This document shows, in pieces, positions 3,420-57,159 of a stretch of 64,000 nt of DNA. The notes beneath the pieces were generated by a model, which saw only the letters and a list, made by a program, of their open reading frames with translations, ran no database searches and had not been told where the DNA came from. Origin of the DNA: Azadirachta indica (lineage: Eukaryota > Streptophyta > Magnoliopsida > Sapindales > Meliaceae); the NCBI GenBank assembly GCA_022749755.1, contig CM040450.1:11616913-11680912 (forward strand). Reading direction: 5' to 3'. Every line of letters starts with the position of its first letter. Positions within the stretch are counted from its first letter, which is position 1. The position numbers were made by a program, and so were the translations under genes.

Positions 3420-4880
3420 ATTAACATCAAAGGAATAAATAATAATATAATATTTGTGTGCAAACAAAAAAAATTATAAATATAACATAAAACGTGTAAA
3501 TCCATATTAAACTTATTATCTTAATATAAAAAATTAAATTTCAATATAAAACATATATCCAGAATATAACAATTGTAAAGGTTAAAATCAAAATAAATAC
3601 AATTGTAAAGGTTAAAATCAAAATTAAAAATAATAAATTAACACCAAAGAATAAAAATGAATATTGATTTAATAAATTTAACATAAAACATGTAAATATG
3701 ATGAAACAAATGTAAGTTAACATTAAAATAATAAATGACAATGTTAAATTTGTATATAAAATAAAAAATTATAAATATAACATAAAACATATAAATCAAT
3801 ATTAAACTTATTATCTTGATATAAAACTTGTAAGTAAACCATAACACTTATAAATGTTAAAATTAAAAAATAAAGCCAACATAAAAGCGTAAAAATAAAC
3901 ATTAATTTTATAAATTTAACATAAAAATGTAAATATAATGAAATACATGTAAATTAACATCAAATTGTCAAATGACAATAGAATAATTTAAACAAAACAA
4001 AAGAATTATAATTGTGATATAAAAATTATAGATTCACGTAAAATTTGTAATCTTCACTTAAAAGAGTAAGTTATAATGTATTATTTATATGTAAAATATA
4101 ATATTTGAAAAATTAAAAATAAAATATAAGCCTACATAAAAAAGTAAAAATAAATATTAATTTCATAAATTCAATATAAAAAAAATAAAGGTACAAAAAT
4201 ACATGTAAACTAATATCAAGTTAAATGACAACATGATTATTGTAAACAAAATAAAAAAAATATATTTGTCACATAAAAGTTATAGATACACATAAAATTT
4301 GTAATATTTGTATAAAAGATTAAATTATAACGTATAACTTGTATGTAAAATAAAACAGTAGTAAAAGTTAAAAATAAAATATAAATCAATATAAAAGAAT
4401 AAAAATAAACACTAGTTTTATAAATTAATATAAAAAATATAAGTGTATTGAAATAAATGTACATTAACATCAAATTGTCAAATGACAATAATATAATTGT
4501 AAACAAAACAAAAGAATTGTAAGTGTGGTGTAAAAGTTATAAATCTATACAAAATTTGTAATCTTTACATAATATGTAAAATTATAACATATAACATGTA
4601 TATAAAATAAAATACTTGTAAAAGTCAAAAATCAAAAACAAAAAATAATAAGCCAACATAAAAAAGTAAAAATGGACATCAATTTCATAAATACAATATA
4701 AAAAATATAATTATAATGAGTTAAATGTAAATGAACATAAATTAATAAATAACAATATTATAGTTATATATGGAATAAAAAGACTATAAATATAACATAA
4801 AGATTGTGAATGAACATTCTACTTGTAATCTTAATATAGAGAATTAAATTAGAATGAAAAAGTTGTATAAAAAATAAAAT
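3420..4880. repeat. Diverged ~250-bp AT-rich tandem array
   Basis: A recurring block (AT-rich ATTAATTTYATAAATT-like core followed by AACATAAAA, then an ATTAACATCAAATTG-like block and a TAAAATTTGTAATCTT-like block) starts near 3661, 3901, 4156, 4411 and 4678, giving spacings of 240, 255, 255 and 267 bp, with a partial unit before 3661. Units differ by many substitutions and small indels, so this is an old satellite-like array. Open frames on its minus strand are low-complexity by-products. Confidence 0.75.
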
Positions 4881-6239
4881 GATTGTAAAATTATAAAAAT
4901 TATTTCAAAATTTTATATAGTTTTAAATTATTATTATTATTATTATATAATATATAATAAAGTATACATAACACATAAATATATGTTTGTTTCTACATAT
5001 ATAGTTATGCTTTACCAAAGGTATAAAAAATGATTGTTGATATTTTTAATTTATTAAAATTATTTAATAATTTTATTTTACATGTATATTAATCAATTTT
5101 TTCTTGTTCTTTTCTTTTCTTTTTTAATTGCATGATTTTAGATAAAGTATCACTTTACAAACAGTAAATGTTAGTAATTTAATAATATCATTCTTGTTAT
5201 GTCATATTGAAATTTTATTATATATGATTAAGATTTCTTAAATTTTGTATTCGTCACAATTAACATCGATTTTATAAAATTAGATTAATTTATATTTTAT
5301 TTTTTTCTTAATTATGCTTTTTCAAATTTCTTGTTTATTTTTATACATCATATGTATGCTTTTTTCACTCATAATTTGTAGGTTTTAAGATATTGTAATT
5401 TTTTTTTTAATGTGATACTAGTTATACAGTTATTTTATTATACTATTTATTTTCGACTATTACAATAACATTTACATCTTCAAATTAACATATGTTTTTC
5501 ATTAATTCATATAAATACAATTATCTTAAGTAATAGATGAGATGTGTCTTATTTGTAATATTATTTTTTGATCTACAATAATTTATTCTATTATTAATAA
5601 TTTTTTAGAAAAATAAAGAAAGACTATGTATTTTGATAATATTTAAATTAATATTTTTAAATAAATTGTTCTTCCTATGCATAACACTTTGTTTAACATT
5701 GAATTTCAATTTAATATATAAATTTGTATTTCAAATATATTTCTAAAAAATAATTATAAAAAATAATTTTAATATATTACAAAAAGAAAATAATCTTTAT
5801 CTTAAATAATATATTAATTTTACATCTTATCTATTGAACAAGTTAATTACTATTATATAGATATAATGAATGATACATATTTTAATTTAAATTTAAAGGT
5901 CAATACGCGTGAAGTATTAGTATTGTAGAATTTTCACCAATCCTAATAACATTATTGTTAAATTCGTTTTAGTTGGCATGTTATATGCATTTTGCACTGC
6001 GTTTCAGTTTGTGTATAATTGAAAACGTTGAAGATCGATATTTGCTGTTCTTCCTGTCATTGAATATGAATGATACTACAGAGCGATGAACAGCAAGCCG
6101 GGAAGATAGCTGCACGTGTGAACCGGCACGTGCGGGGTGTATTAGTTTTACGGCAAAGGCCATGGGTGATAGCCTTCAAGGTTCTTCAAAAGAGAGAGGA
6201 ATTAAAAAAAGCGAAGTGTTTGTGAAATGGTCGCAATTA
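4881..6239. other. AT-rich intergenic DNA
   Basis: No gene recognised. A less AT-rich patch at about 5900-6200 has only a 60-codon minus-strand frame without recognisable motifs. Confidence 0.5.
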
Positions 6240-11226: not shown

Positions 11227-14200
11227 TTATACCTTTTTTAACCATTGGCGGTAAATGAACTCCTCCAACGGTCTAATACAATACTTGAACAAGGAAATCA
11301 ACATAACAAGCCACAAGGACATCACCAAAATAATAATTATGCCAGGCGAAAACCAGTTTCCAAATCCTCTGTATCTACCATAAGGATCATCTTCCCAAGC
11401 CATTGCCTCTTTAATGTATTTCTTTCCTGCACTCATCACAACATTTTCTCCATCTTCAGCCAATCTTATATGAGATAAAATGTGAGGGAAAACTTTCTTA
11501 TGAGACTCTTCCCCTATCAATAAGTCCGAATGCCCAAAACCCTCCACGACCACCCGATCATGTCTGAAGCCTGGCTGGTGCAATCTCATGTACTTGTGAG
11601 CCAGAAAAGAAGTTTCCGGTGTCACGAGAAGACTCCGTCCACCAGAAATGTATAGCGTTGAGAGTGTCATTCTCTCTGGATGGATCAAATATGAGTTTTT
11701 TCCATTGCTGTCAACGATATATCCTGAGTTGCAGATTTTTCTGAGATGAGGAAACCCTGCCATGGGAAGTTCTGTGGTGCTTTGCCTGTTTAACCAATTG
11801 TGCACGGTAGCGCTTACATTTTGATGCCAGAATACATTACCAAATATGCCTGAAAAGACCTCGCATTCCTTGCACATGCATCTCTCATATCGTGGAATGA
11901 GACGGGCTATGCATTTCAAGAGCTGATGTCGCAAACTGGTTTTTGACGTTTCTAAAAGAGGCAAAATTTTGTGCTTGCCTAGTATAGCCATTGATACCTG
12001 CAGATTTAGTTATATGCCATGAAAAATCCAAATGTAAACTTGTTTTTATTATGCCAAGAAATTGATAATAGCACTTTTTGGGCGGTCATACTGAATATTT
12101 TTGAAGAAAAGGTTTTACATCCTAGGAAATTTTCATCTTATATCTCTCTTTTATTCACATATTGACCACATCAGTTGCTTGAAATAATAAGCTGAAACAT
12201 AAATTCACTTATTTATTTCCAACTTAAATCTCAATGTAAGTGGGTAAGCATGAAGATGTCTGGTGGCATGCATGCCTATAAGATTGGAGCCATGAAAGGA
12301 GATGTCTTCTGCTATAAAACAATTGTTACAGTATCAAACATGAAATGCATTTCCACCAGTCGAGCCAACTATTAATTTTCGCTGTCTCTTGTCAGAAGAA
12401 ATTTTCCCCCAGTCCTGACCACTGTGGGGGTAAAAAAGTCTAACATATATGAATTTCGAGATTGACTAGAAAGAAGGAAACTTACAGGGACCAAAGGAAG
12501 CCACATTTTGAATGCAGGCAATGCATTAAGCTTGAAGAACATTGAAGAGTTTGTGCAAGAAAGAGAAGCTATGTGGGTTGCAGAGACGTGCCCTCCCATG
12601 ATAGCAATGTGAATAGCTAAGCCTCCAACACAGTGTGCAACTACATGAACTTTTATGCTCTGCCCGTGAAATTCAAGGATCTTATCAATCGCTGTAAAAA
12701 TAATATAAAAGAAATTACTCATTCAGACGATGATGGGATCATTAAGTGTCAAATATGAATTTTTTTTTTTTTTTTTGCATTTTTCTTTTACCAGCAGGAA
12801 TATCAAATCTTCCAATATCTTCGATTGTGAAGTTGTTTGCAGAAGGTAAATGGTGCAATCGTGATTGCAGTAGCCATGTCTCGTGCCCTTCTTCCAACAA
12901 AGTTCTCACTAGATCATTTGGTTCTGTCAGGAGCCAGTAACTCTCCGTGGAATATCCATTAAGAAGGAGAACTGGATTTAGTTGCCTCTCTCCTTCAGGC
13001 CTTTGATTTTGACTGCATTTCCATTGTCTGCAACTGATGATATATCTATCTTCTGCAAGATCCAGAGTCACCAGACAAAGATCAAAACATGCATCTCATC
13101 TCAGTGACATTGAAGAAAATGAAAGTAATAATTAAGTGAACCCTTGTTCCATATTTTCCTTTGGCATAAATAATTGAATCACTAATTTGAGTGTGTTAGT
13201 TTGGGTATGTTTTACAGTTAATTCCTCCTAGCATCTGTGGAAGGTTTGAATGCTTTCTTGTCTGTTTGAGCATATATTTAATAGAATTTAAATACCTGTT
13301 TTGATTTCATGAAGACTGCTGTTTGGATAAGATTTATGGTAGGAATCTGGCAGGTTATGATCCTTGTGATTCCCTCGTGGTATTTGTAAAATATACGTTC
13401 TCAGGAGAGTCTTTGAGAGAAGAAATAAGAAGCTTCTCTTCCCATTTCCTTCAAGGCTCATAAAACTCTTCAGTAGCTCTTTTAAGGATATTATAAGTTC
13501 TCCTGTTAAATTTATGACTTCACACTCTGAACTGTCCCCAGAAATTTTTTTGAATGTTACATGCAATGTAGTTGTCTCCCTCCAAGCATACACCGCAAAT
13601 AGAAAAGGATTCATTATCTTCTTTCCCTCGAGAATATATCTGCATAAATTTAGATTTTAATAGTTATGTAGAGCAAAAGGAAAGTGGAAGTGACTTGAAA
13701 TTTTGGACTTCGTTGCACCTTAAACCAGAAGAAGCTGCAAGAAGAAGACGATAGTGCATGTATTGTGTGTAAGGAGTTCTGTAATCCACTTGGCAAAGAT
13801 CCACTTCCCCATCTATAATATGTAGTTTATCCTTCGCAATCACAGAAAATAGAACATAGCCTCCAACTTTTCCTCTTAGTAGTTGATGAGATTCTCTAAT
13901 AACTGAATTTCCTTCGTCAAAATCTTTATGATTCAGAGAATTCATTTTCATTTTGAGATAAGCAGTGCATGGCATGCCCCCAATATAGCCTTGCATAGTC
14001 TCTTTAATCACAATAATTGATCTGGGACTGCTCCTTAAATTGTTATTACTAGTCGCTCGAGAATACTGCTCAACAGATTTAGTAAGCTCAATGGCTTTTT
14101 CGGTCTTGTACTTGAGAACGTCCTTCACGAGGTGTCTACTTACATGCTCGGCTGCTGCTGCAATAGTAAGTGACGGGTTTATGCCAACAGAACATGGGAT

Positions 14201-16904
14201 TAAAGAAGCATCACAGACATATAGGCCTGGATGCACGCCTGCGGGAGCCTTTGGATCAAAAACCTGACCGTTAGGGTTGCAAACACCATGTGAAGGGTCT
14301 GAAGATGCATTGCAACCTCCTAAAAGATGAACTGAAGTGCTCCGGTACCTTGACATGAAAAGGATTCCACCTAATTTCTTGGTGAGCTTTTGAAAAGCCT
14401 CAATTTTACGTGGAAGTAAAGGATCCTGGGGCGGAGAAAAACAGATTTTGTTTGTGCCCTTCTCAAGTGTGATTCTCCCATCACTCTCATCATATCCCAT
14501 GGCATTAAGCACCATTGCTTGGCTTGATTTAAAACCTATGAAATGCTTCAGCTTATCTATAATCCCATCAACGAACCAGTAACCAGTCGGCCATCCATAA
14601 GTTGTAATCCCTTTAAACAGCAGGTAGGGATAAGCAGTTGGAAGGACTGCAGTCTACAGCAAAAGAAAACAGGACAAGTGTGCCTATGAGCCATATGCCC
14701 TTACCAGCACAGAGAAAATTTACACTCGTGTAAGAATATGATAAAGTTCTATTCTTTAGTCATTCAATTCCTTTTATACCATAAAATCATCCTGAACCAT
14801 TGGCAATAATCAATGAACAATAATGAACGACATTTATGAGTTGACATGCTTGTTATTCACATTATAAGTTGCCTGCAAGGATGGCACAGTGGCACTATAT
14901 TAAATTTGGTCAGAAATCCAACCACTAAAGCAAGCTTTAAGGAGATACCCAATTGAAAGTGTCTGGAAAGTAAACTTATTCGCAGATAAGAAAAATGTTT
15001 GAGATATTGTTGTTCTTAGAAGCAAGTGAGACTTTTATTACCACCAAATAGCAAAAGAAAAAATGGGCCCAGTATTTTGATGAGCATATCATCTTCTCCC
15101 ACGAAAATAGGACTCCATGAGAAGTAAAGTGAATTGAATTTTGAGCGTGGTGAAATCTTATACCTGGATTGTGAAACCCAATGAAGAAGTGTGAGACGAT
15201 GAGATGGCTGGTCCAGGCCGCACTTGAAATGGTTTCTCTGGGATTTTCTTTCTGTCTAACCCATAAGAACTCAGGGGAGCAGGGCTTCCAGAAAGATAAG
15301 CGACAGTGTTCCCATTGCAGCTGAATCCAGATCCCAGGGCTTCTGAAAGTTTTAATCCTCTCATCTGTGACTGAAAAAGTATCTCAGTTGTGCCAAGAAC
15401 TCCAGCTGAGAATGATAATTTCTGAACTCGTTACAGGTTTTGAAATCAATTCCAAATAATATATCTAGCATCTGTCATAACAGCTTCCTACCTGATAAGA
15501 TTACAAAATCCGAGGTTATGTAGTCAACTTCATTCAAATAAACAAACCATCTTCTTCTTTTTCTGCTGTTTTTGTCTTCTTGCGAACTTTCATATGGGTT
15601 TTTAACGACATATTGAACTTGACATTCTGTTTTAACTACACATCCAGCCTGTATCAAACAAAAAGAGATTCAGATTTGAAGAGAGAGAGATACATTACAA
15701 ATGAGCGTATGCTTGGACATCTCATAGGGTATTATTTACTCCATATTGTTTTTGATCGAGAATGCTATTCGGACCTTACCAACATTCGTGTTGTTTCCTT
15801 CTCTAACATTTACTGATCTAAGAGCATTCCATGCAAACAGAGAGAGAAATCAATATGCAACTTATCAAACAATATATGAAGTTATGGGAAATATGCCTGA
15901 ATAGCTGAAAGGATGTAATTTTTGTCAGTAGAATTTTTGGCATTATAAGAGCATCCAGCAAGGCAATTTCCACAGGCTAAGCAGCTACCCATTTGTTGAG
16001 GCTTCATTAGATTGGATGGACGCTCTTCAAGATCAAAATTTATGCTCAGCTTCATCAATTCTTCAGAACTGTCTTTGATCACTCCATTGGCTACTTCTCC
16101 CATGACTTTGGCAACAGGAAACCTGACAGGGACACTCTGTATTCTCAACATGGCAGAAGCAGAAGCTTCGCAGCTGTCCCAGTCTCTTTCCCATTCCTTT
16201 GGCCATTTTGGATTCCTTTTAGCACGAACTGGAGTTCGCAGCATCACTCCACCGTTGACTAGTGACCCTCCACCAAGCCCACAAGCCACTACCGCTACAG
16301 AGTCACCTTGCTCATAGACCTGTTACATGATTAAACAGTCATCTTTGCACTATGCTTAAAAAAGTAGATGAATACTCTGTTTTGCTCGTCAGTAAAAGCA
16401 CAAAAATTTATCTTCATGCATCATGTTGAAGAGATATGACATATTCATGCATACGGCAGTTCAGATGTTTATTTGGTGTCTTCACTCCTGGTTTCAGTAT
16501 ATTTGTCCTGATTAAACTTTATTCATGCAGAGACGTAATTTTCAATTGCTAAAACACAAGCATATTTACCTTGTCTTCCTGTTAAACTATAGGTTTTGCG
16601 GAAGCAACCATATAGCAGGCATAGAGAAAGAGAGAATAACCTGAAACAAAGCATCTTTCGGGCCAAAGCTGAAACCTACATTCCTGTTCTCCATCCTCAC
16701 AGCGGACATAAACTTCAAACTATCAGCTGGAAAATCATGAGCTTCCCACTGTCGACCTTTCTCTAGTAGACATACCTTTATCCCTGCCATTGACATCCGG
16801 AAAGATGCAACAGAACCTCCATACCCAGATCCCACAACAACAGCATCAAAACCATCTTGTTCTTCATCACTCAACCTTTGTTCTAAATAAGCTTGGTTCT
16901 CCAT
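11227..16904 (-). CDS. GMC (cholesterol-oxidase-like) oxidoreductase fused to alpha/beta-hydrolase
   Basis: Nine exons on the minus strand can be joined without a stop: 16641-16904, 15897-16319, 15492-15648, 15164-15405, 13719-14653, 13296-13639, 12792-13052, 12486-12691 and 11227-11997. Together they make 3603 nt, 1200 residues. The N-terminal part is a GMC-type FAD oxidoreductase: dinucleotide motif GSGYGG at residues 25-30, a cysteine cluster C201/C204/C207/C211 (CxxCxxCxxxC) and the GMC C-terminal block with SVHLLGG (H471) and NPS (N521), the likely His/Asn pair. The C-terminal part resembles an alpha/beta-hydrolase or lipase: elbow AHCVGG with Cys896 where Ser is usual, GFGHSD with likely catalytic His1100, and one hydrophobic span at about 1163-1183 that may anchor it in a membrane. 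Intron 2 starts with GC, not GT. The substrate is unknown; a sterol or other hydroxylated lipid is only an inference. A dead tandem copy lies upstream at 20.3-26.5 kb. Confidence 0.8.
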
Positions 16905-20288: not shown

Positions 20289-23200
20289 TTACTTGAAAAA
20301 TGAAATCAACGTAACAAGGCACAACAACATCACCAAAATAATAATGCCAGGAGAAAACCAGCTTTCAAATCTTCTGTATCTACCATAAGCATCTTCTTCC
20401 CAAGTCATGGCCTCTTTGCTGTATTTCTTTCCTGCACTTATCACAACATTTTCTCCATTTTCAGCCAATCTTATATGAGATAAAATGTGGGGGAAAACTT
20501 TCTTATGAGACTCTTCCCCTATCAATTAGTCTGAAAGCCCAAAACTCTCCACGACCACCCGACCATGTCTGAAGCCTGGCTGGTGCAATCTCATGTTCTT
20601 GTGAGCTAGAAAAGAAGTCGCCGGTGTCACGAGAAGACTCGCTTTCCCTGTTTAGCCACTTCTGCATGGTAGGGCTTATATTCTGATGCCAGAATGCATT
20701 GCCAAATATACCTGAGAAGACTTCACATTCATTGCACGTCCATCTCTCATACCGTGGAATTGGACGGGCTATGCATTTCAAGAACTGGTGTCACAAAATT
20801 TTTCTTTTTTTTTCTTTAAATACTGTTTAATCATAAACTAAAAGGAAATATATTAAAAAAAATAGAAGAGAACAATAATACAAGCATTGGAAATGCCAAA
20901 ATGGCTTACAAGATTGCTATCAAAACCAAAAAATGGCCCCATCTTAATAGAAAGTGGAACAAAACTCAGCATGCAAGCAAAGAGGCAGCAACAATCCATC
21001 AAAACTTATCTATCCAGCAATCATAACTGCAGAATTAAGCAAAACATTGGTAACCAGTAGAAGTACCAGTCAGCAGCAGAAGAAATCTAGCAGCAAGCAT
21101 AAAATTAGCTCAAACAGGCCAGAGCAGTCTTTGAAATGCAGCAAGTAGCAATTGTCTATAGCAAAGTCAATATAAAAGCAGCACCCGAAAGCTTTGCTAT
21201 CACAATAATCTAGTCTGACAGCAAGCGAAAAAACCGGTAACAGTAGCCAACAACTCGAGCAACGCATTTAGAAGATTCAAAATCCATAAAAACCAGTTTC
21301 ATGAAAATCTATAGTTAGGGAAGCCCCAACAATTTTTAAGAAGAGCATCTTTGATTTGAATAGGCGGGGTATCAAACCAAATGGAACCTAAAGAACAGAG
21401 TCCCAAATTCGCCATAATATCCGCAACCTTGTTACCTTCTCGGTACGTATGCGTGCAATAGAAAGAGATCTTGGACACAGAATCTTTACATTTAGCCAAT
21501 CATTTCTAATACGCCAAGGCAGATTGAAGTTAGAGTTAAGCTAGCAAGAGACAGCTGCGCTTGAGTCAATCTCTAGCCAAATAAAATTCCGACCTCTTTT
21601 AGCAGCATAAGAAATAGCTGAATAATATCCATAATTTCTGCAAAGACAGAAGATTGACACCCCAGGTTCATGGAAAATGCACCCAAAAAATCACCTTGAA
21701 ATTCTCTAAAAACACCGCCACAAGCTGAAGCACCAGATTGGTCTGTGATGCACCATCCGTATTTATTTTTACCAAAGGTCTAGTTGGAGGAGGCCAAAAC
21801 ACTGGGATTATACTGAGAGCTCTACCTTTTCTAACATCCACTCCAAGCAACCAAAGAGCGTTCAAATGAAGAACCGACGAAACAAATCCTGGACAAGAAG
21901 GAGGTCAAGACTTAAGAAAAAACTTACATGAAGCAATAACAAGAGAGTTATGCTGGTGTCGCAAACTGGTTTCTGACGTTTCTAAAAGAGGCAAAAAAAA
22001 TTTCTTGCCTAGTTTAGCCATTGATACCAGTAGATTTAGTTGTGTTACAAGAAAAATCCAAGCCTTAACTTTGTGGAGGTTAAAAGTCTCAGCAGATACG
22101 AATATCGAAATTAAAGAACAAGAAGGAAAAACTTACAGGAACTAGAGGAAACCACATTTTGATTGCAGGCAATGCATTAAGCTTTAAAAACATTGAAGAG
22201 TTTGTGCAAGAAAGAGAAGCTATATGGATTGCGGAGACATGCCCTCCCATGATAGCAACGTGAACAGCTAAGCCTCCAGCAGAGTGTGCAACTACATGAA
22301 CCTTTATGCTGTGCCCGTGAAATACAAGGATCTTATCAATTGCTATAACAAATAACACAGAAGTGAGAAAATAATCATTCAGACAATCAGGGAATCATTT
22401 AAGTGTCAAATACGAATTCAATTGGGTATGATACATTCTTTATTTACCAGCAGGAATATCAAATTTTCCAATATCTTCAATTGTGAAATTGTTTGCAGGA
22501 GCTAAATGGTGCGATCGTGATTGCAGTTGCCATGTCTCATGCCCTTCTTCTAGCAAAGTTCTCACTAGATCATTTGGTTCTGTTAGGAGCCATTAACTTT
22601 CTGTAGAATATCCATCAAGAAGGACTGCATTTAGTTGTTTCTCTCCTTTAAGCCTCCTTCGATTTTGACTGCTCTTCCATCGTCTGCAACTGATGAAATA
22701 TCCATCTTCTGCAAGATCCGCAGTCACTAAAAAAAGATCGAAAAATGCATCACAGTGAAGACTGAATGAACGTAATAATTGAGGAGATAAATAATAATTG
22801 ATATCACTAACTTGAATTAGTTTGGGTTTGCTTTATAGTTACTCCTACTAGCATCTTTGCAAGGTTTTGAATGCTTTCTTGCTTGTTTGAGCAGATATTT
22901 AATAGAATTTAGATAAAGATCTAGCTGATCCCTTTTAACTCCTTATAACAAGCATCTCTACTAAGACAGTTTGAATTTGATCAGGACAATATTAGCAAAT
23001 TTCAAGCTCCCGGATCTCAAACAGTAGATCCGGATTTTTGAATACCTGTTTTAATTTCATGAAGAGAGCCGTTTGGACAAGGTTTATGGTAGGAATCTGC
23101 TGGTTTATGGCCCTTTTAATTCCCTCTCGGTATTTGTAAGATATAGGTTCTGAGGAGAGTCTGTGAGAGAAGGAATAAGAAGCTTACCTTCCCATTTCCT

Positions 23201-26200
23201 TCAAGGCTCATAATACTATTCAATGGCCTTTTCAAGGGAATTCCAAGTTCTCCTGTTAAATTATAACTTCACCCGTGAAGTGTCGCTAGAAAGTTTTTTG
23301 AATGTTACATAAAATTTAGTTGTCTCCCGCCAAGCATATATCGCAAATAGAAAATGATTCATTATCTTCTTTCCCTCGAGAATATATCTGCACAAATTCA
23401 AATTTCAGTATTTATGTAGAGGGGAAGGAAAATGGAAGTGACTTCAAATTTAGACTTCAATCGCACCTTGAATCAGAAGAAGCTGCAAGAAGGAAACGAT
23501 AGTGCATTTATTGTGTGTAAGGAGTTCTGGAATCCAGTTGGCAAATATCCACTTCCCCATCTCTAATATGTAATTTATCCTTCTCAATCGCTGAAAATAC
23601 AACATACCCTCCAACTGTTCCTCTTGGTGGGGATGTGATTCTCCAAAAACCGAATCCCCTTCACCAAAATCCTTATGATTCAGAGAATTCTTTTTCATTT
23701 TGAGATAAGCTGCACATGGCATACACCCAATGTAACCTTTCAGTCTCTTTAACCACAACAATTGAACTGGGACTGCTCCTGAAACTCATACCAGTCGTTG
23801 CACGAGGATACCAATCAACAGGTTTAATAAGTTCTACGGCCTTCTTGTTTTCGTACTCGAAAACATCCTTCACAAGGTGCCTAGTTAGGTGCTCGGCTGC
23901 TGCTGCAATAGAAAGTTATGGGCTTATGCCAACAGAGCATGGGATTAAGGAAGCATCACAGACGTATAGCCCTGGATGCGCTTCTATGGGAGCCTTTGGA
24001 TCAAAAACCTGACCGTTGGGGTTACAAACACCATGTGAAGAATCTGAAGATGCATTGTAACCTCCTAAAAGATGAACCGAAGTTCTCCGGTACCTTGGCA
24101 TGAGGAGGATTCCACCTAATTTCTTGGTAAGCTTTTGAAAGGCCTTAATTTTATGTGGACGTAACGGATCCTGGGGTGGAGAAAAACAGATCTTGTTTGT
24201 GCACTTCTCAAACGTGATTTTCCCATCACTCTCATCATATCCCGTGGCATTAAGCACCATTGCTTGGCTTGATTTAAAACATATGAAATGCCTCAGCTTA
24301 TCCATAATCCCATCAAAAAGCCAGTAACCAGTCGGCCATCCATAAGTTGTAATCCCTTTAAACAGCAGGTAGGGATTAGCAGTTGGAAGTACCCCAGTCG
24401 ACAGTGAAAGAACAGAAGAGTAGTGTTGGAAGTGTACATATGGAAACAATTGTGCCTATTACCCATATGCTCATACCAGCACAGAGACAAAAACATGCAC
24501 TTGTGTAAGAATGCTATAAAGTTCTTCCCTTGCATAGTCATTTAAATCCATTTACACCATAAAATCAACCTGAATGTTTGCCAATAATAAATGAATAATA
24601 ATGAACAACAATTATGAGTTGACATGCTGCATATTCACGTTAGAAGTTGCCAGCAAGGATAGGCCAGTCTCATTATATTAAATGAAATCCGAAATCCAAC
24701 CATTAAAGTAAGATTTAAGAAGATGAGAAAATTGGTGGCACCTGGAAAGTAAACTCTTTCACAGATAAGAAAAATGTTTGTCGTATTGTAGTTTGCGCAC
24801 CAATTGATTAAATTTACATTTTTATTACTACCACATAGCAAAAGAAAAACTGGCCCCCAGTCTGATGATCATATCAGTATTCTCTTGTGAAAATAAAACT
24901 CCATGAGAACTAAATTGGATTTTGAGTGTGGAGAAATCTTATACCTGGATTGCGAAACCCAGTGAAGAAGTGTAAGATCAAGAGATGGCTGTCCCAGGCC
25001 GCACTTGAAATGTTTTCTCTGGAATTTCCTTCTGTCTAACCCATATGACTTCAGAGGAGAAGGGCTTCCGGCAAGATAAGCGACAGTATTCCCAGTGCTT
25101 CTGAAAGTTTTAATCCTCTCATCTGTGACTGAAAAAGTATCTCAGTTGTGCCAAAAACTCCAGCTGAGAACAAGTTTTGAGCTTGTTACAGGTTTTGAAA
25201 TCAATTTCGGATAATATATTTAGCATCTGTCGTTACAGCTTACTACCTGATAGGATTACAAAATCTGAGGTTTTGTAGTCAACTTCATTTAAATAAACAA
25301 ACCATTTTCTTCTTTTTCTGCTGTTTTCTCCTTGCAAACTTCCATATGGGTTTTCGACGACATACTGAACTTGACATTCTGTTTTAACCACACATCCAGC
25401 CTGCACAAAAACCAATGAAAAAAATTTGAACAGAGATGAATATATTACAAATGAGGACATGCTTGGACATCTCATAGAGCATTATTTACTCCATGTTGTT
25501 TAGATGGAGAATCAACGAAGGGTTGCCATTCGGACCTTGCCAACATTGATGTTGTTTGTATTATTTCTAACATTTATTGATCTAGAAGCAATATATGGAA
25601 ATAGAGATATAAACTTATAAGCAAATTATCAAACAATGTATGAACTTATAAGAAGTATGCCTCGATAGCTGAAAGAGGATAATTTTTGTCAGTAGAATTT
25701 TCGGCATTATATGAGCATCCAGCAAGACAATTTCCACAGGCTAAGCAGCTAACCATTTGTTGAGGCTTCATTAGATTGGATGGAGCTTCTTCAAGATCAA
25801 AATTTATGCTCAACTTCATCAATTCTTCAGAAATTTCTTCAATCACTCCATTGGCTAATTCTGCCATGACTTTTGCAACAGGAAACCTAACAGGGACACT
25901 CTGTATTCTCAACATAGCAGCAGCAGAAGCTTCACAGCTGTCCCAATCTCTTTCCCATTCCTTTGGCCATTTTGGATTCCTTTTTGCACGAACTGGAGTT
26001 GGCAGCATCAATCCAGCGTTGATTGGTGACCCATCACCAAGCCCACAACCCACTACTGCTACAGAATCACCTTGTTGGAACACCTGTTATTCATGCAGAG
26101 AAGTAATTTTCAACTGCTAAAACACTAAATCATTTTTACCTTTCTTTTAACATACAGGCTTTGCAGAAGCAACCATATAACCAGCATAGAGGAAGGGAGA

Positions 26201-26480
26201 ATAACCTGAAACAAAGCATCTTTTTGGCCAGAGCTGAAACCTACATTCCGGTTCTCCATCCTCACAGCAGACATGAACTTCAAACTGTTAGCTGGAAAAT
26301 CACGAGCCCCCCATTACCGACCTTTCTCTAGTAGACATACCTTTATCCCTGCCATTGCCGTCCGGAAAGCTGCAACAGAACCTCCGTATCCAGATCCCAC
26401 AACAAGAGCATCAAAACCATCTTGTTCTTTATCACTCAAACTTTCTTCCAAATATGCTTGTTTCTCCAACCCTTTTCTTA
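20289..26480 (-). pseudogene. Dead tandem copy of the GMC oxidoreductase-hydrolase gene
   Basis: All exons of the 11227-16904 gene have a counterpart here in the same order and orientation. The initiator ATG is replaced by TTG near 26472. A TAA follows the ...LLEKGR block in exon 1, and the exon-4 counterpart (about 24950-25180) has an internal deletion. Exon 5 has a TAA after GISP (near 23918) and a frameshift near 23750. The exon-9 counterpart lost ~130 bp near 20640, has an in-frame TAA before LIGEESH, and is split by a LINE. The C terminus stops early after LISFFK. The exon-2 counterpart (25646-26083) is still open and keeps the CxxCxxCxxxC cluster. The hydrolase elbow reads AHSAGG, with Ser (codon 22281-22283) where the intact gene has Cys. 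Confidence 0.9.
20798..21952 (-). mobile_element. 5'-truncated LINE insertion with RNase H-like remnant
   Basis: A 1155-bp block absent from the intact sister gene interrupts the exon-9 counterpart. It is flanked by CTGGTGTCACAAA (20785-20797) and CTGGTGTCGCAAA (21953-21965), a 13-bp duplication with one mismatch; the sister gene has this site once. Read on the minus strand it ends in an A-rich tract (T-rich on the plus strand at 20799-20818). It encodes broken pieces of a plant LINE RNase H domain: PLVKINTDGAS near 21760-21790, then THTYREGNKVADIMANLGL near 21400-21460. The short length and 3' A-tract fit a truncated target-primed insertion. Confidence 0.85.
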
Positions 26481-29833: not shown

Positions 29834-29837
29834 AAGG

Positions 29838-30117
29838 TGTCACGCGCCCAGCGGAAAGGCACGTGCGGCACCCTTGTAGACCCCCATGTCGAGGGTAAGC
29901 CTTGTTAGTCCGTCGCATATTTAACTGGTTTCGGCCTACCTTGGCCTCATCAGGAGGACGGCTTCAGTCCCCGACCAGTTCGGGCAGAGGTGGTCTAAGT
30001 CTCCTCTACATAATAGCCCTTGAGACTGAAGCCGACTTTGCACCATGAAACATCAATGTGCTTGAGTTGTCACACCCCAACACACCCAGCCAACATGCGA
30101 TCTTTCGTGCTATGACA
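29838..30117 (-). repeat. Retrozyme LTR copy 1
   Basis: 280 bp, with TGTCACG/CGTGACA-type termini. It differs from copies 2 and 3 at a few single bases (for example TTGTAGA versus TCATAGA and TCGTAGA near its plus-strand start, and a GTCCGTCG/GCCCGTCG difference). Just outside at 29834-29837 is the AAGG target duplication. Confidence 0.92.
29923..29980 (-). ncRNA. Type III hammerhead ribozyme, copy 1
   Basis: Minus-strand order: AACUGG (stem III, 29975-29980), UC with cleavage after the C at 29973, GGGGAC (29967-29972), loop UGAAGCC, GUCCUC (29954-29959; stem I with one G-U pair), CUGAUGA (29947-29953), GGCC, loop AAGGUA, GGCC (stem II), GAAA (29929-29932) and CCAGUU (29923-29928; stem III). 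Every conserved core base is present and stem III pairs six of six. Stem III is the open one, so this is a type III hammerhead, the class found in retrozymes and viroid-like RNAs. Self-cleavage is predicted, not shown. Confidence 0.95.
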
Positions 30118-30593
30118 TTTTTCACCACCGAAAATCGTGCACGTCCTCGTGCACTTGGCCATCTTCAAATTTTTCGCCAGCTCAATTGGTAGACCATCGA
30201 GGTCCTACCCTGCATACCGCTCCACTCCCTAACGCCCATCTCCCCCGGGCTAAGGAGACTCCCATAAAGAGAACACGATAACACCTCGTCGTGCGGGCAC
30301 GCCATCTTCGACGTACGGTGGTAGCAGTGCTTGGCGTAGATGAGGCGCTATGCGGTTGCCTTTCAAACCACTATGCTCATCTTCCCCCAGGAAGATCCCC
30401 ATACCGCAGGACACAACATAGTGCGAGCACGCCCACATTCGGGGCTGCGTGGCGAAGGGTCACACAATAGACACCCCGTTTTCCCTCGCCCAATCTTACG
30501 GGCTAATATCCTCGGCCGTCTCGGTGGATTCCCACAGGAGTCAGGAACGTAGCGAGATTTTGCGGAAATTCTCGTTCCTGATCTGATACCATC
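30118..30593 (-). other. Retrozyme internal region 1 with PBS and purine tract
   Basis: Non-coding 476-bp internal domain. The minus-strand TGGTATCAGA primer-binding site lies at 30582-30591, two bases from LTR copy 2, and the purine-rich tract lies at 30118-30129 against LTR copy 1. No open frame has recognisable protein character. Confidence 0.85.
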
Positions 30594-30873
30594 TGTCACG
30601 CGCCCAGCGGAAAGGCACGTGCGGCACCCTCATAGACCCCCATGTCGAGGGTAAGCCTTGTTAGCCCGTCGCATATTTAACTGGTTTCGGCCTACCTTGG
30701 CCTCATCAGGAGGACGGCTTCAGTCCCCGACCAGTTCGGGCAGAGGTGGTCTAAGTCTCCTCTACATAATAGCCCTTGAGACTGAAGCCGACTTTGCACC
30801 ATGAAACATCAATGTGCTTGAGTTGTCACACCCCAACACACCCAGCCAACATGCGATCTTTCGTGCTGTGACA
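30594..30873 (-). repeat. Retrozyme LTR copy 2 (central, shared)
   Basis: 280 bp, 756 bp from copy 1. It serves both tandem units, which is how an integrated dimer or an LTR-LTR recombination product looks. Confidence 0.92.
30679..30736 (-). ncRNA. Type III hammerhead ribozyme, copy 2
   Basis: Identical over all 58 positions to copy 1: CUGAUGA at 30703-30709, GAAA at 30685-30688, cleavage expected after the C complementary to 30729. Cleavage here and at copy 1 would release a 756-nt RNA. Confidence 0.95.
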
Positions 30874-31348
30874 TTTTTCACCACCGAAAATCGTGCACGT
30901 CCTCGTGCACTTGGCCATCTTCAAATTTTTCGCCAGCTCAATTGGTAGACCATCGAGGTCCTACCTGCATACCGCTCCACTCCCTAACGCCCATCTCCCC
31001 CGGGCTAAGGAGACTCCCATAAAGAGAACACGATAACACCTCGTCGTGCGGGCACGCCATCTTCGACGTACGGTGGTAGCAGTGCTTGGCGTAGATGAGG
31101 CGCTATGCGGTTGCCTTTCAAACCACTATGCTCATCTTCCCCCAGGAAGATCCCCATACCGCAGGACACAACATAGTGCGAGCACGCCCACATTCGGGGC
31201 TGCGTGGCGAAGGGTCACACAATAGACACCCCGTTTTCCCTCGCCCAATCTTACGGGCTAATATCCTCGGCCGTCTCGGTGGATTCCCACAGGAGTCAGG
31301 AACGTAGCGAGATTTTGCGGAAATTCTCGTTCCTGATCTGATACCATC
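30874..31348 (-). other. Retrozyme internal region 2 with PBS and purine tract
   Basis: Essentially a copy of internal region 1 with a one-base deletion (CTACCTGCAT versus CTACCCTGCAT), hence 475 bp. The primer-binding site TGGTATCAGA lies at 31337-31346 on the minus strand, next to LTR copy 3, which is the 5' LTR in transcription sense. Confidence 0.85.
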
Positions 31349-31628
31349 TGTCACGCGCCCAGCGGAAAGGCACGTGCGGCACCCTCGTAGACCCCCATGT
31401 CGAGGGTAAGCCTTGTTAGCCCGTCGCATATTTAACTGGTTTCGGCCTACCTTGGCCTCATCAGGAGGACGGCTTCAGTCCCCGACCAGTTCGGGCAGGG
31501 GTGGTCTAAGTTCCCTCTACATAATAGCCCTTGAGACTGAAGCCGACTTTGCACCATGAAACATCAATGTGCTTGAGTTGTCACACCCCAGCACACCCAG
31601 CCAACATGCGATCTTTCGTGCCGTGACA
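31349..31628 (-). repeat. Retrozyme LTR copy 3 (5' LTR in transcription sense)
   Basis: 280 bp, starting 755 bp after copy 2. It has two or three private substitutions (for example GGCAGGGG for GGCAGAGG and AGTTCCCTC for AGTCTCCTC). The plus-strand end GTGACA is followed by the AAGG target duplication (31629-31632). Confidence 0.92.
31434..31491 (-). ncRNA. Type III hammerhead ribozyme, copy 3
   Basis: Same 58 bases as copies 1 and 2: CUGAUGA at 31458-31464, GAAA at 31440-31443, expected cleavage after the C complementary to 31484. The substitutions private to this LTR lie outside the ribozyme. Confidence 0.95.
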
Positions 31629-31632
31629 AAGG

Positions 31633-52628: not shown

Positions 52629-52687
52629 TGTTATTAACGCGGACGCACAATTAAATGAATCGGTGCTTCACAGTCCACTTAATTGGG

Positions 52688-53368
52688 ATGGACCCGGCAT
52701 TCCGTCACCGCCGATCTCCCTCCTCCGACCGATTCCTTGGCATCTCATCGTCTTCATCAACCTCAGCCGCATCAGACGGGGGAGACGAGTTGAACGAAGA
52801 CGATATTTTATGGACAAACGATCCAACGGAGCCAAACAACATCAACGACAACCACAACATCAATTACAATAACCACAACCACGCGTTCACCTCCTCTTCT
52901 TCGAATCACAGCCGTTCATCTTCATTCACGCATCAACAGAATTCCGGAATCCTTGCTGCATTACCCGAACACGATAACCGCCCAATCCTTAACCGCAAGA
53001 ATTCGATATCTTCGTCTGCATCGTCCTCCGCGTCGTCATCCAAGATGATTCCGACGATTCCGAAGCCTCCGCAGGTGGAGAGATCGCAATCGATGCCTAA
53101 TAATAGGAAGTACCAACACTCGGCGCCGATGAACGTGCCGCTTTTGTCGATCGCGATGGCGAAGCAGAGGAATAGCAGGTTTTTTGAACTCGACGAGGAG
53201 GAAGCAGACGATGAGATGCTGCCGCCTCACGAGATTGTGGCTAGAGGATCGGGCGTGTCGCCGAAGACGACGTTCTCTGTTTTGGAAGGCGTCGGACGTA
53301 CTCTTAAAGGGAGGGATCTTCGTCAGGTCAGGAACGCTGTTTTTCGCCAAACTGGTTTTCTTGATTGA
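52688..53368 (+). CDS. Senescence-regulator S40 family protein (DUF584)
   Basis: Single-exon gene of 226 residues starting MDPAFRHRRSPSSDRFLGI; an upstream in-frame ATG at 52655 would add 11 residues but lies at the likely transcript start. The N-terminal SDRFLG motif, the Ser/Asn-rich low-complexity middle and the C-terminal block (LPPHEIVAR near 182-190, then SVLEGVGRTLKGRDLRQVRN and RQTGFLD at the very end) are the signature of the plant S40/DUF584 family. Family members respond to senescence, abscisic acid, salicylic acid and pathogens, and several are nuclear; the molecular activity is not known. The gene is GC-richer than its surroundings and looks intact. Confidence 0.9.
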   Translation: MDPAFRHRRSPSSDRFLGISSSSSTSAASDGGDELNEDDILWTNDPTEPNNINDNHNINYNNHNHAFTSSSSNHSRSSSFTHQQNSGILAALPEHDNRPILNRKNSISSSASSSASSSKMIPTIPKPPQVERSQSMPNNRKYQHSAPMNVPLLSIAMAKQRNSRFFELDEEEADDEMLPPHEIVARGSGVSPKTTFSVLEGVGRTLKGRDLRQVRNAVFRQTGFLD

Positions 53369-55336: not shown

Positions 55337-56340
55337 TTATCATGATGATGAGTGTTGTCGTAATAGGGGTGAGATTGAGTGTTGTCGTATTCATTCGCCA
55401 AATTAATTAGATTATCGAAGAGACGTATTTCATGTATTAAAATATGGTCGGTTGAAAACCTTTCTTTACTTTTTTTATAAATGCGGCGGCAAAATCAAAC
55501 CAATTTTTAATCTCAGGAAAATGTCGCAGTTTGTTTCTTTATTTCAAATTCAATGAAGGTAGACATTCTAACTTCTAAGGAGGTTTCTTGACATCCTTAT
55601 CTTGAACATCAAGGAATAGCAAAATTATCAAAATTACTAACCAAAAAGAAAAGATCCACTAATTTTAATTTTAATTAACAAATACCATCACCTTTTATCC
55701 CTTTTTCAGGTGAAGAATTTCATCTTTTATCCTTTTTTCTCATATGAAGAACGATGATTTTAAGCAATGGCTAGGCCAATCATGAATGGATTTAATTATG
55801 AAATTAGTAGACAGTTAAACAAATAGTTCGCAGGTAAACTTACCCAAGTTAATTTTTTTTGTTTAATTGTTACAAACCTATTATCAGAGTTATTTGATTT
55901 CGGTATTCCTATCTTATCAAGAGTTCAATTTTTAGTCCCGAGTCCAAATTTTCTTTTAAGTTAAGAAAACATTTAAATCTACCAAATAATTAGTTGAAAG
56001 CTACTTCGGTAGCATAATTTTAGCTAAGCTAAGACCAACGCCAATAATTGGAGGGGTTCCAAATCTACCCAATTATCTCGAGTATCATTGGTCTAATCTT
56101 TAAATGAAAAAATTCACCGTAGTCCGAAAAGCTGAAAATAAGAAACCGAAATGCAAAATAAATTACTCTCAGAGACAAATCAACATCAACATTAAATGCT
56201 ATATATTAGTAGTCCCGAAAATATCTTGGATAAATTCGAGCGTTAAACAAAACAGATGATATAATATAAAATTTGGTCTCAGACATCCAAGGAAGGATAA
56301 AAGCAGCACAAGCTCTCAAGCCCGGCGAAGGCGAAAGCTC

Positions 56341-57159
56341 TTAGGCGGCCACTGCGAATGTTTTGAGAAACAAGCCTTTCAATTTATCCTCATTGACCAA
56401 ATTTACACTTTCAACTTCTCAATTTGTTACCAAATTGAAGCCAAAATTCTTAGAATAAACAAAATTAAAGGCAAGTCAGACAAATCTATATGCCTCAAAA
56501 AGTTTGAGCTCAGAAGAGAAATCCATATGTACATATGTATTAACCCTTCACACATCTAATTGATTCATCTTTCTTGCCAAAACCATAAAATAACCGAATC
56601 TAATTTCATCTTTTAAAACCAATTTAGCCAAAAATAAAAGCACCCACATTTTAAAATAGCAATAATGTGAGATGAAGGTGTTTCCCTACCTTCAAAACAG
56701 AAGCATTTCATAATGTACCCCCGACCTGAATCACCCATTGATTGAAGCAACCAAAGAGAAAATAAATAGCCTGGAAACTACTTAAATCCTTTGGAGCTCA
56801 AGAAATGGGAAAAATTACAGGTCCAGAGATACAGATGAGCTTCGTATAAGAAGAAAACAGGTGAGGGATGAGAAGGGGAAACTCAATAGGAAAACCCTAA
56901 AGAGAAAAACCCCTAAAGGACGAGTTCAATATTGCGCAGCTATGACTCAAAACGCTTCCATATTGCTTTTTGGAAGGCGATCTTAAGGGCTGCGCTTTCA
57001 CGTACTAGAATATATGAGTGAAAACCTAAACACCCACATTGACAAACGTTTTGGCTTATTTGGCTTGACGAAATTTGAGAGACAAGAAGCGGCAGAGATT
57101 ACAGACGCAGAAACCCTACGGACGTGGGAAGTTGAAGAAAGAAAGTGAGGTATTTATAG
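56341..57159 (-). other. Candidate minus-strand transcription unit with tiny spliced frame
   Basis: On the minus strand CTATAAATA (57151-57159) precedes a GC-richer, leader-like stretch (GTAGGGTTTCTGCG, TTTAGGGGTTTTTCTC) standing out from AT-rich DNA. An ATG at 56736-56738 opens MGDSGRGYIMKCFCFE, followed by a plausible GTAGGG donor (exon end 56700). An acceptor at 56352-56353 leads to VAA and a stop at 56341. Only a 19-residue product would result, so a non-coding RNA is at least as likely. I do not recognise the peptide. Confidence 0.25.

What the first reader, a model, noticed from the sequence alone, without database searches (positions are those of the whole stretch)
29838..31628. Dimeric retrozyme with three intact hammerhead ribozymes
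The sequence shows three 280-bp LTRs and two ~476-bp internals in tandem. Each LTR carries, on the minus strand, a fully paired type III hammerhead (stem III AACUGG/CCAGUU, CUGAUGA, stem II GGCC/GGCC, GAAA, cleavage after GUC). Primer-binding site, purine tract and AAGG target duplication are in place. Retrozymes are known in plants as non-autonomous retroelements that spread via small circular RNAs. Here nearly identical units and perfect ribozymes suggest a recent, perhaps still active copy, and the head-to-tail dimer could be an integrated concatemer.
Basis: partly seen in the sequence, partly recalled or inferred. Interest (0 to 1): 0.95.

Follow-up and report, generated by a model that had tools for sequence, protein, structure and literature searches.

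The report
Plant retrozyme dimer, probable helper
A small plant jumping element whose RNA carries a self-cutting ribozyme sits here as a tandem pair; sister copies fused to a larger virus-like element in the same genome point to the machine that probably moves it, a partner so far only guessed at.

Summary
In detail: three 280-bp LTRs, two internals (475/476 bp), three identical minus-strand type III hammerheads, AAGG target duplication. It is one copy of a retrozyme family with 271 hammerhead-pattern sites in a 281-Mb plant genome (probably neem, not verified). The interpretation needs correcting. The locus is not fresh: its outer LTRs differ at 8/280 sites, and both internals share changes in PBS and PPT. 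It is probably not an integrated concatemer: the internals have no substitution between them yet share six rare changes, and the middle LTR shares four derived sites with the 3' LTR only. This fits duplication after insertion by unequal LTR-LTR exchange. A trimer elsewhere, with four identical LTRs, may be a true concatemer. Beyond the brief, I found a probable helper: a chromovirus with an unrelated 625-bp LTR lacking a hammerhead. (1) Both insert at the same palindromic target, AGC-N4-GCT, with 4-bp duplications. (2) Eight retrozyme-helper composites are each bounded by one target duplication (two read end to end), best explained by joining before integration. In the papers searched the helper was only inferred from short shared boxes. 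There were no RNA data and no control family for the target.

The parts
29834..29837 (.). target site duplication AAGG (left); the site reads AGC-CCTT-GCC in element sense
31629..31632 (.). target site duplication AAGG (right)
31349..31628 (-). LTR 1 (5' LTR in element sense); keeps the family-majority state at LTR positions 7, 38, 116, 130
30874..31348 (-). internal region 1, 475 bp
   Evidence: no substitution against internal 2, one G-run indel
30594..30873 (-). middle LTR; shares derived states 7A, 38T, 116A, 130T with LTR 3
30118..30593 (-). internal region 2, 476 bp
29838..30117 (-). LTR 3 (3' LTR in element sense); differs from both others at positions 6, 209, 243
31434..31491 (-). type III hammerhead ribozyme; predicted cleavage between 31484 and 31483
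   Evidence: RF00008 44.6 bits, E 5.5e-8; position
30679..30736 (-). type III hammerhead ribozyme; predicted cleavage between 30729 and 30728
29923..29980 (-). type III hammerhead ribozyme; predicted cleavage between 29973 and 29972
31335..31346 (-). primer-binding site TGGTATCAGATC (one change from the family majority TGGTATCAGAGC), unit 1
30580..30591 (-). primer-binding site, unit 2, same change
30874..30885 (-). polypurine tract GGTGGTGAAAAA (family majority GGTGGTGGAGAA), unit 1
30118..30129 (-). polypurine tract, unit 2, same changes
30594..30744 (-). stretch of the middle LTR in which the inferred crossover lies (3' of LTR position 130)
   Evidence: inference

Best explanation
The locus is one aged copy of a plant LTR retrozyme. 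Step 1 (inferred, as in published retrozymes): LTR transcription, hammerhead cleavage and ligation give a ~755-nt circular RNA. Step 2 (supported here, indirectly): a resident chromovirus, called H below, supplies reverse transcriptase and integrase; retrozyme and H cDNAs occur in the same particle or integration complex, can be joined there, and are inserted at AGC-N4-GCT sites with a 4-bp duplication. Step 3 (supported here for this locus): a monomer inserted and collected mutations, and an unequal exchange between its 3' and 5' LTRs then duplicated one unit. This made the LTR-internal-LTR-internal-LTR dimer, rather than integration of a ready-made concatemer.
For: Membership. Duplication after insertion: internals have 0 substitutions in 475 bp against 8/280 between the outer LTRs (Fisher p 3e-4). 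Six rare changes (seen in at most 3 other internals; four of them in none) are shared by both internals, including one in the PBS and two in the PPT, and none by all three LTRs. The set 7A-38T-116A-130T is in the middle and 3' LTR and in none of the other 129 LTRs aligned. Internals gather singletons about twice as fast as LTRs in the family sample. Helper: 26 of 42 non-duplicate retrozyme sites are GC-N4-GC, 7 of 11 non-duplicate H sites and 5 of 8 composites, against 81 in 62,209 positions of window host DNA. Eight composites have a single TSD. The C3 composite carries gag and a 1248-aa Pol ORF with protease, RT, RNase H, integrase and chromodomain matches.
Against: Gene conversion between units, or a template switch in LTR 1, could mimic the LTR pattern; 16 of 45 two-LTR pairs differ at one or more of the 7 common polymorphic columns, so pre-existing variation or mutation hot spots can enter LTR pairs. 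The excess of shared rare changes in internals over LTRs is not significant alone (6/475 against 0/280, p 0.09). C10:1095900 and C19:887391 do not show the duplication signature, so concatemer insertion may happen in this family. The target palindrome has no control from another LTR family of this genome: the search needed did not complete. Only two of the eight single-TSD composites were read end to end. No RNA, particle or cDNA data were seen. H copies are genomic copies of unknown activity; in C3 a stop separates gag and pol.
Confidence: 0.77

Rival explanations
1. Integrated concatemer: reverse transcriptase ran more than once round a circular (or along an oligomeric) retrozyme RNA, and the three-LTR cDNA integrated in one step.
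For: Published model for multimers (PMC4918200, Discussion read). The trimer C10:1095900-1098456 has four identical LTRs and one TSD TGCC; dimer C19:887391 has few and mostly private differences. At C6 one retrozyme lap sits inside H at the PBS.
Against: At this locus four derived LTR sites are shared by two of three LTRs, internals do not differ while LTRs do, and rare internal changes including PBS/PPT are shared.
Confidence: 0.2
2. Template switch: LTR 1 was copied from a second RNA during reverse transcription of a multimer, so LTR 1 lacks the derived sites.
For: Switches between retrozyme and H are seen elsewhere, and 16 of 45 two-LTR pairs differ at one or more common polymorphic columns. 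Odds raised from 0.10 for that recount.
Against: The set 7A-38T-116A-130T is in no other LTR aligned, so the RNA carrying it would be unsampled; it does not explain internals without substitutions beside private LTR changes.
Confidence: 0.12
3. H is only a recombination partner; a different Ty3/gypsy element moves retrozymes.
For: LTR ends, PBS and PPT of this type are shared with Ty3/gypsy elements in general (PMC4918200, passages). No control family was tested for the target palindrome.
Against: Shared target palindrome in separate H and retrozyme insertions and composites with one TSD, two of them end to end with each partner's own 2-nt LTR-PBS spacer still present.
Confidence: 0.12
4. Assembly artefact: one unit was duplicated by mis-assembly.
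For: Near-identical 755-bp units are hard to assemble; the one internal difference is a G-run indel.
Against: The three LTRs differ from one another at nine sites, so reads can tell them apart; five multimers with different signatures occur.
Confidence: 0.06

Closest known systems
Plant LTR retrozymes (Cervera et al. 2016, PMC4918200; Discussion and passages seen)
   Same: LTR with type III hammerhead, 4-bp TSD, PBS complementary to tRNA-Met, PPT, non-coding internal; [quoted passage not shown]
   Different: LTR 280 bp instead of about 300-400; a strong AGC-N4-GCT target, not mentioned in the passages seen; signs of duplication after insertion at this locus; a probable helper in the same genome.
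Nicotiana benthamiana retrozymes NbRZ3/NbRZ9 (PMC9695139, passages seen)
   Different: there taken as support for rolling-circle replication; here mutation patterns favour unequal exchange for the window dimer.
Chromoviruses (Ty3/gypsy with chromodomain)
   Same: H has gag, protease, RT, RNase H, integrase and chromodomain, a PBS of the same sequence and TG...CA LTRs
   Different: no hammerhead was found in its own LTR; composites bring hammerhead LTRs and gag-pol sequence into one insertion. Clade within chromoviruses not assigned.
Tos17 palindromic target ANGTT-TSD-AACNT (as cited in PMC6911290, passages seen)
   Same: palindromic bases flanking the TSD of a plant LTR element
   Different: different bases, 5-bp TSD and a different element.

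Membership tests
plant LTR retrozyme | hammerhead type III inside each LTR | tested here: met
   three identical copies, E 5.5e-8, below gathering score 48.5
plant LTR retrozyme | two or more LTRs around a short non-coding internal | tested here: met
   no ORF of 150 aa or more (stop to stop) at the locus
plant LTR retrozyme | 4-bp TSD | tested here: met
   AAGG; 45 of 57 full elements have a perfect 4-bp TSD
plant LTR retrozyme | PBS complementary to tRNA-Met and PPT | tested here: met
   both present, both changed from the family majority; the tRNA match is recalled and from the papers, not tested
plant LTR retrozyme | self-cleavage and circular RNA in the plant | not testable with these tools
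   no RNA or bench data
integrated rolling-circle concatemer | units and LTRs equally diverged, private changes only | tested here: not met
   window dimer:
chromovirus (H) | Ty3/gypsy gag-pol with chromodomain | tested here: met
   on the C3 composite: RVT_1 1.5e-40, rve 1.9e-8, Chromo 1.1e-12, Retrotrans_gag 2.9e-16
helper of this retrozyme family | supplies RT and integrase in trans | tested here: inconclusive
   indirect: shared target palindrome and single-TSD composites

The most novel reading that the evidence does not exclude
Retrozymes and one chromovirus family form a working pair that shares particles. Their nucleic acids recombine at the LTR-end/PBS box, and some composites have become units with hammerhead LTRs around helper sequence. 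One of these (C7:3713825-3718743, its helper part carrying a deletion) has its own TSD at an AGC-TGTA-GCT site, so hammerhead LTRs can carry helper DNA to new sites.
Probability: 0.55. Interest if true: 0.8.

Novelty: new variant of a known kind. Interest (0 to 1): 0.62.

Why it matters
In the papers I could see, the element that moves plant retrozymes is named only as some Ty3/gypsy element, on the strength of two ~25-nt boxes. Here one family in one genome can be tested: it leaves the same target-site fingerprint and is found covalently joined to retrozymes under single target duplications. Tandem retrozymes, cited as support for rolling-circle replication, may have at least two origins, told apart by how changes are shared between LTRs and internals.

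Tried and rejected
Considered first and dropped: that the C3 element (L055) is an autonomous ancestor from which retrozymes arose by deletion. The stretch after pol proved to be a second, unrelated 625-bp LTR, and neither H against the retrozyme internal nor LTRh against the retrozyme LTR gave an alignment of note (best E 0.25), so it is a composite.

Considered: pre-existing LTR polymorphism as the cause of the dimer's LTR differences. The four-site set is absent from 129 other LTRs, but 16 of 45 two-LTR pairs do differ at one or more common polymorphic columns, so this is weakened, not excluded.

Rows dropped: blast hits under 100 nt; three of 73 element chains not located for flanks; three segmental-duplicate sites before counting 42; 12 of 57 full elements without a perfect 4-bp TSD, three of them composites; 7 of 20 H elements or single H LTRs without one and two more duplicates; several old or odd elements from the singleton count. 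The 45 pairs leave out multimers and pairs aligned over 240 columns or fewer. Hammerhead constraint was therefore recomputed on the 54 LTRs found by whole-unit similarity.

Led nowhere: a negative control for the target palindrome from another Ty3 family (PF24626 unanswered); a bacterial-type promoter scan of the LTR. Homology search of the H protein and structure prediction were not run.

Full report
What is there. Window 29838-31628 holds, on the minus strand, LTR-internal-LTR-internal-LTR with 280-bp LTRs and internals of 475 and 476 bp, flanked by AAGG. Each LTR has the same 58-nt type III hammerhead (RF00008, 44.6 bits, E 5.5e-8). All three score below Rfam's gathering threshold, as do the 66 genome matches reported (68 of 28,069 first-look candidates were scored; best 47.1 bits), so a default Rfam scan of the window lists none. 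The 58-nt RNA folds into the hammerhead secondary structure. In the whole LTR, the predicted fold pairs the stem I strand with an upstream stretch and masks the ribozyme; a blocked hammerhead is described for other retrozymes (PMC4918200, passages).

Host. The window lies in C11 of a 280.8-Mb, 21-contig assembly. Contig 5 is 19,542,217 bp. The published chromosome-level assembly of Azadirachta indica has 281,629,231 bp, 14 chromosomes and scaffold N50 19,542,739 (PMC9069239, passages seen). Neem or a revision of that assembly is therefore likely, but not verified.

The family. A 29-nt hammerhead pattern has 271 places (control 0). I read 66 merged regions with 73 element chains. Of 70 located for flanks, 57 are full and 45 of these have a perfect 4-bp TSD. 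Five chains are multimers: the window dimer, a trimer at C10:1095900-1098456 (TSD TGCC), a dimer at C19:887391 (TSD TGGA), and two truncated ones at C13:5570062 and C19:811014. Of 45 two-LTR pairs, 6 are identical and the median divergence is 1.43%; without two duplicates and three composites, 4 of 40 are identical. Among the 54 LTRs found by whole-unit similarity the hammerhead is exact in 41; variable columns are 11 of 58 inside and 85 of 222 outside (p 0.005). The ribozyme is thus better conserved than the rest of the LTR.

How the dimer arose. The outer LTRs differ at 8/280 sites; the internals differ by one indel and no substitution (Fisher p 3e-4). Internals collect singletons at least as fast as LTRs in the family sample. 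Compared with the other copies (129 LTRs, up to 63 internals), no rare change is shared by all three LTRs, while six are shared by both internals, four of them unique: one in the PBS, two in the PPT. That contrast alone is not significant (p 0.09). The middle and 3' LTR share derived states at positions 7, 38, 116 and 130, while LTR 1 has the family state; no other LTR aligned has that set, though single members of it occur. The simplest history is insertion of a monomer, mutation, then unequal exchange between LTRs that copied the unit. The 3'-LTR privates at 209 and 243 do not by themselves place the other side of the crossover. C13:5570062 shows the same kind of sharing (184A and 262T in LTRs 2 and 3).

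Two other multimers do not show it. The trimer has four identical LTRs; its internals differ by one substitution and by G-run indels, two of the three sharing an extra GG. The C19:887391 dimer has one or two private changes per part and one site (column 113) shared by LTRs 1 and 2. These may be true concatemers. In the published model, multimers come from reverse transcription of circles (PMC4918200 Discussion, read; PMC9695139 and PMC11722881, passages).

Target site. In 42 non-duplicate insertions the TSD is flanked by GC on the left in 34, on the right in 33 and on both sides in 26, with A (30) and T (29) next out: AGC-N4-GCT. Window host DNA has GC-N4-GC at 81 of 62,209 positions. The window element itself reads AGC-CCTT-GCC. 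A survey of 12 plant genomes reports a weak preference for palindromes among LTR elements (PMC6911290, passages). Searches listed no title or abstract reporting this target for retrozymes, and the passages I saw do not mention it; the papers' supplements were not available.

The helper. At C3:3224717-3231113 (L055) two hammerhead LTRs enclose gag, a 1248-aa Pol ORF with a chromodomain, a PPT, an unrelated 625-bp LTR (LTRh), a second PBS and a retrozyme internal. LTRh belongs to a chromovirus family, H (40 candidates scored of 295). Its LTR resembles the retrozyme LTR only at the ends, and no hammerhead was found in it at E up to 1 in L055 and L073. Of 20 H elements or single LTRs whose ends were read, 13 have a 4-bp TSD; of 11 non-duplicates, 9 have GC on the left, 8 on the right and 7 on both. 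H and retrozymes therefore use the same target. No other LTR family could be examined as a control.

Composites. Eight retrozyme-H composites have one TSD around the whole. (a) Tail to tail: C10:963789-968223 (ATAA) and C10:4028126-4032553 (TTGA). Their junctions keep GT after the H LTR and GA after the retrozyme LTR, the 2-nt LTR-PBS spacers, with 4 and 1 extra bases. (b) Retrozyme first, H LTR last: C5:7918769-7923681 (TCAT) and C10:1733658-1737471 (ATAG). (c) H LTR first, retrozyme last: C8:16408583-16412464 (TTGT). (d) Retrozyme plus the last 193 bp of LTRh: C4:11548640-11549875 (TTTG). (e) A retrozyme lap inside H at the PBS: C6:5785070-5790306 (AGTA). (f) H, with a deletion, inside a retrozyme: C7:3713825-3718743 (TGTA, in AGC-TGTA-GCT). 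GC flanks the TSD on the left in 6, on the right in 7 and on both sides in 5 of the 8.

Only (d) and (f) were read end to end. Of C10:963789, C5 and C6 part was read; for C10:4028126, C10:1733658 and C8 only ends (and for the first the junction) were read, and the rest is inferred from places. C3 and C7:11620178-11625090 have no TSD. The second C6 copy, C11:3173352, C5:1962818, C5:9158012 and C19:811014 were not tested for one. A composite with different LTRs at its two ends and one TSD is hard to make after integration; joining beforehand, in a shared particle or complex, is the natural reading. At C19:811014 the retrozyme part begins at LTR position 147, next to the predicted cleavage at 145/146, as if a cleaved linear RNA had been copied to its end; this is one case only.

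What is shown and what is inferred. Shown: anatomy, mutation sharing, target palindrome, composite ends and TSDs, all from one unnamed assembly. Inferred: cleavage and circles in the plant, H as the enzyme source, and the order of events at the window locus. After the recount I raised the template-switch rival slightly and lowered the main reading from 0.78 to 0.77.

Noticed in passing
window 56275-56398 and 56466-56582, minus strand: Two C/D-box snoRNAs in a row, SNORD14 (80.6 bits) and snoZ266 (61.2 bits).
   Followed up: no
window 11319-16874 and 20324-26439: A diverged tandem duplication, copies about 9-10 kb apart, with pieces of GMC oxidoreductase genes.
   Followed up: partly
window 52655-53368, plus strand: A 237-aa open frame with a Senescence_reg domain (E 3.2e-43).
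   Followed up: no
window 3429-4889: AT-rich array of a ~255-bp unit.
   Followed up: no
G000:C1:4097, 23060, 41994: Hammerhead sites spaced about 18.95 kb near the contig start, suggesting a large tandem repeat; the one read (L031) is a lone LTR.
   Followed up: partly
L055 (C3:3223100-3232900): The C3 composite is flanked by a 395-bp direct repeat that is 100% identical while its hammerhead LTRs differ at 4 of 280 sites; unexplained.
   Followed up: no
C13:5570062, first LTR: Six rare changes private to one LTR of a truncated multimer are all G to A; overall 601 of 787 minority states at conserved columns of the family are C>T or G>A, as expected of methylated DNA.
   Followed up: partly
G000 H family, e.g. 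C5:4967316-4971825 and C10:963789-967177: H occurs in three size classes by LTR-to-LTR spacing (5.2-5.4, 3.88 and 2.76 kb), so deletion derivatives of H seem to be moved themselves.
   Followed up: partly
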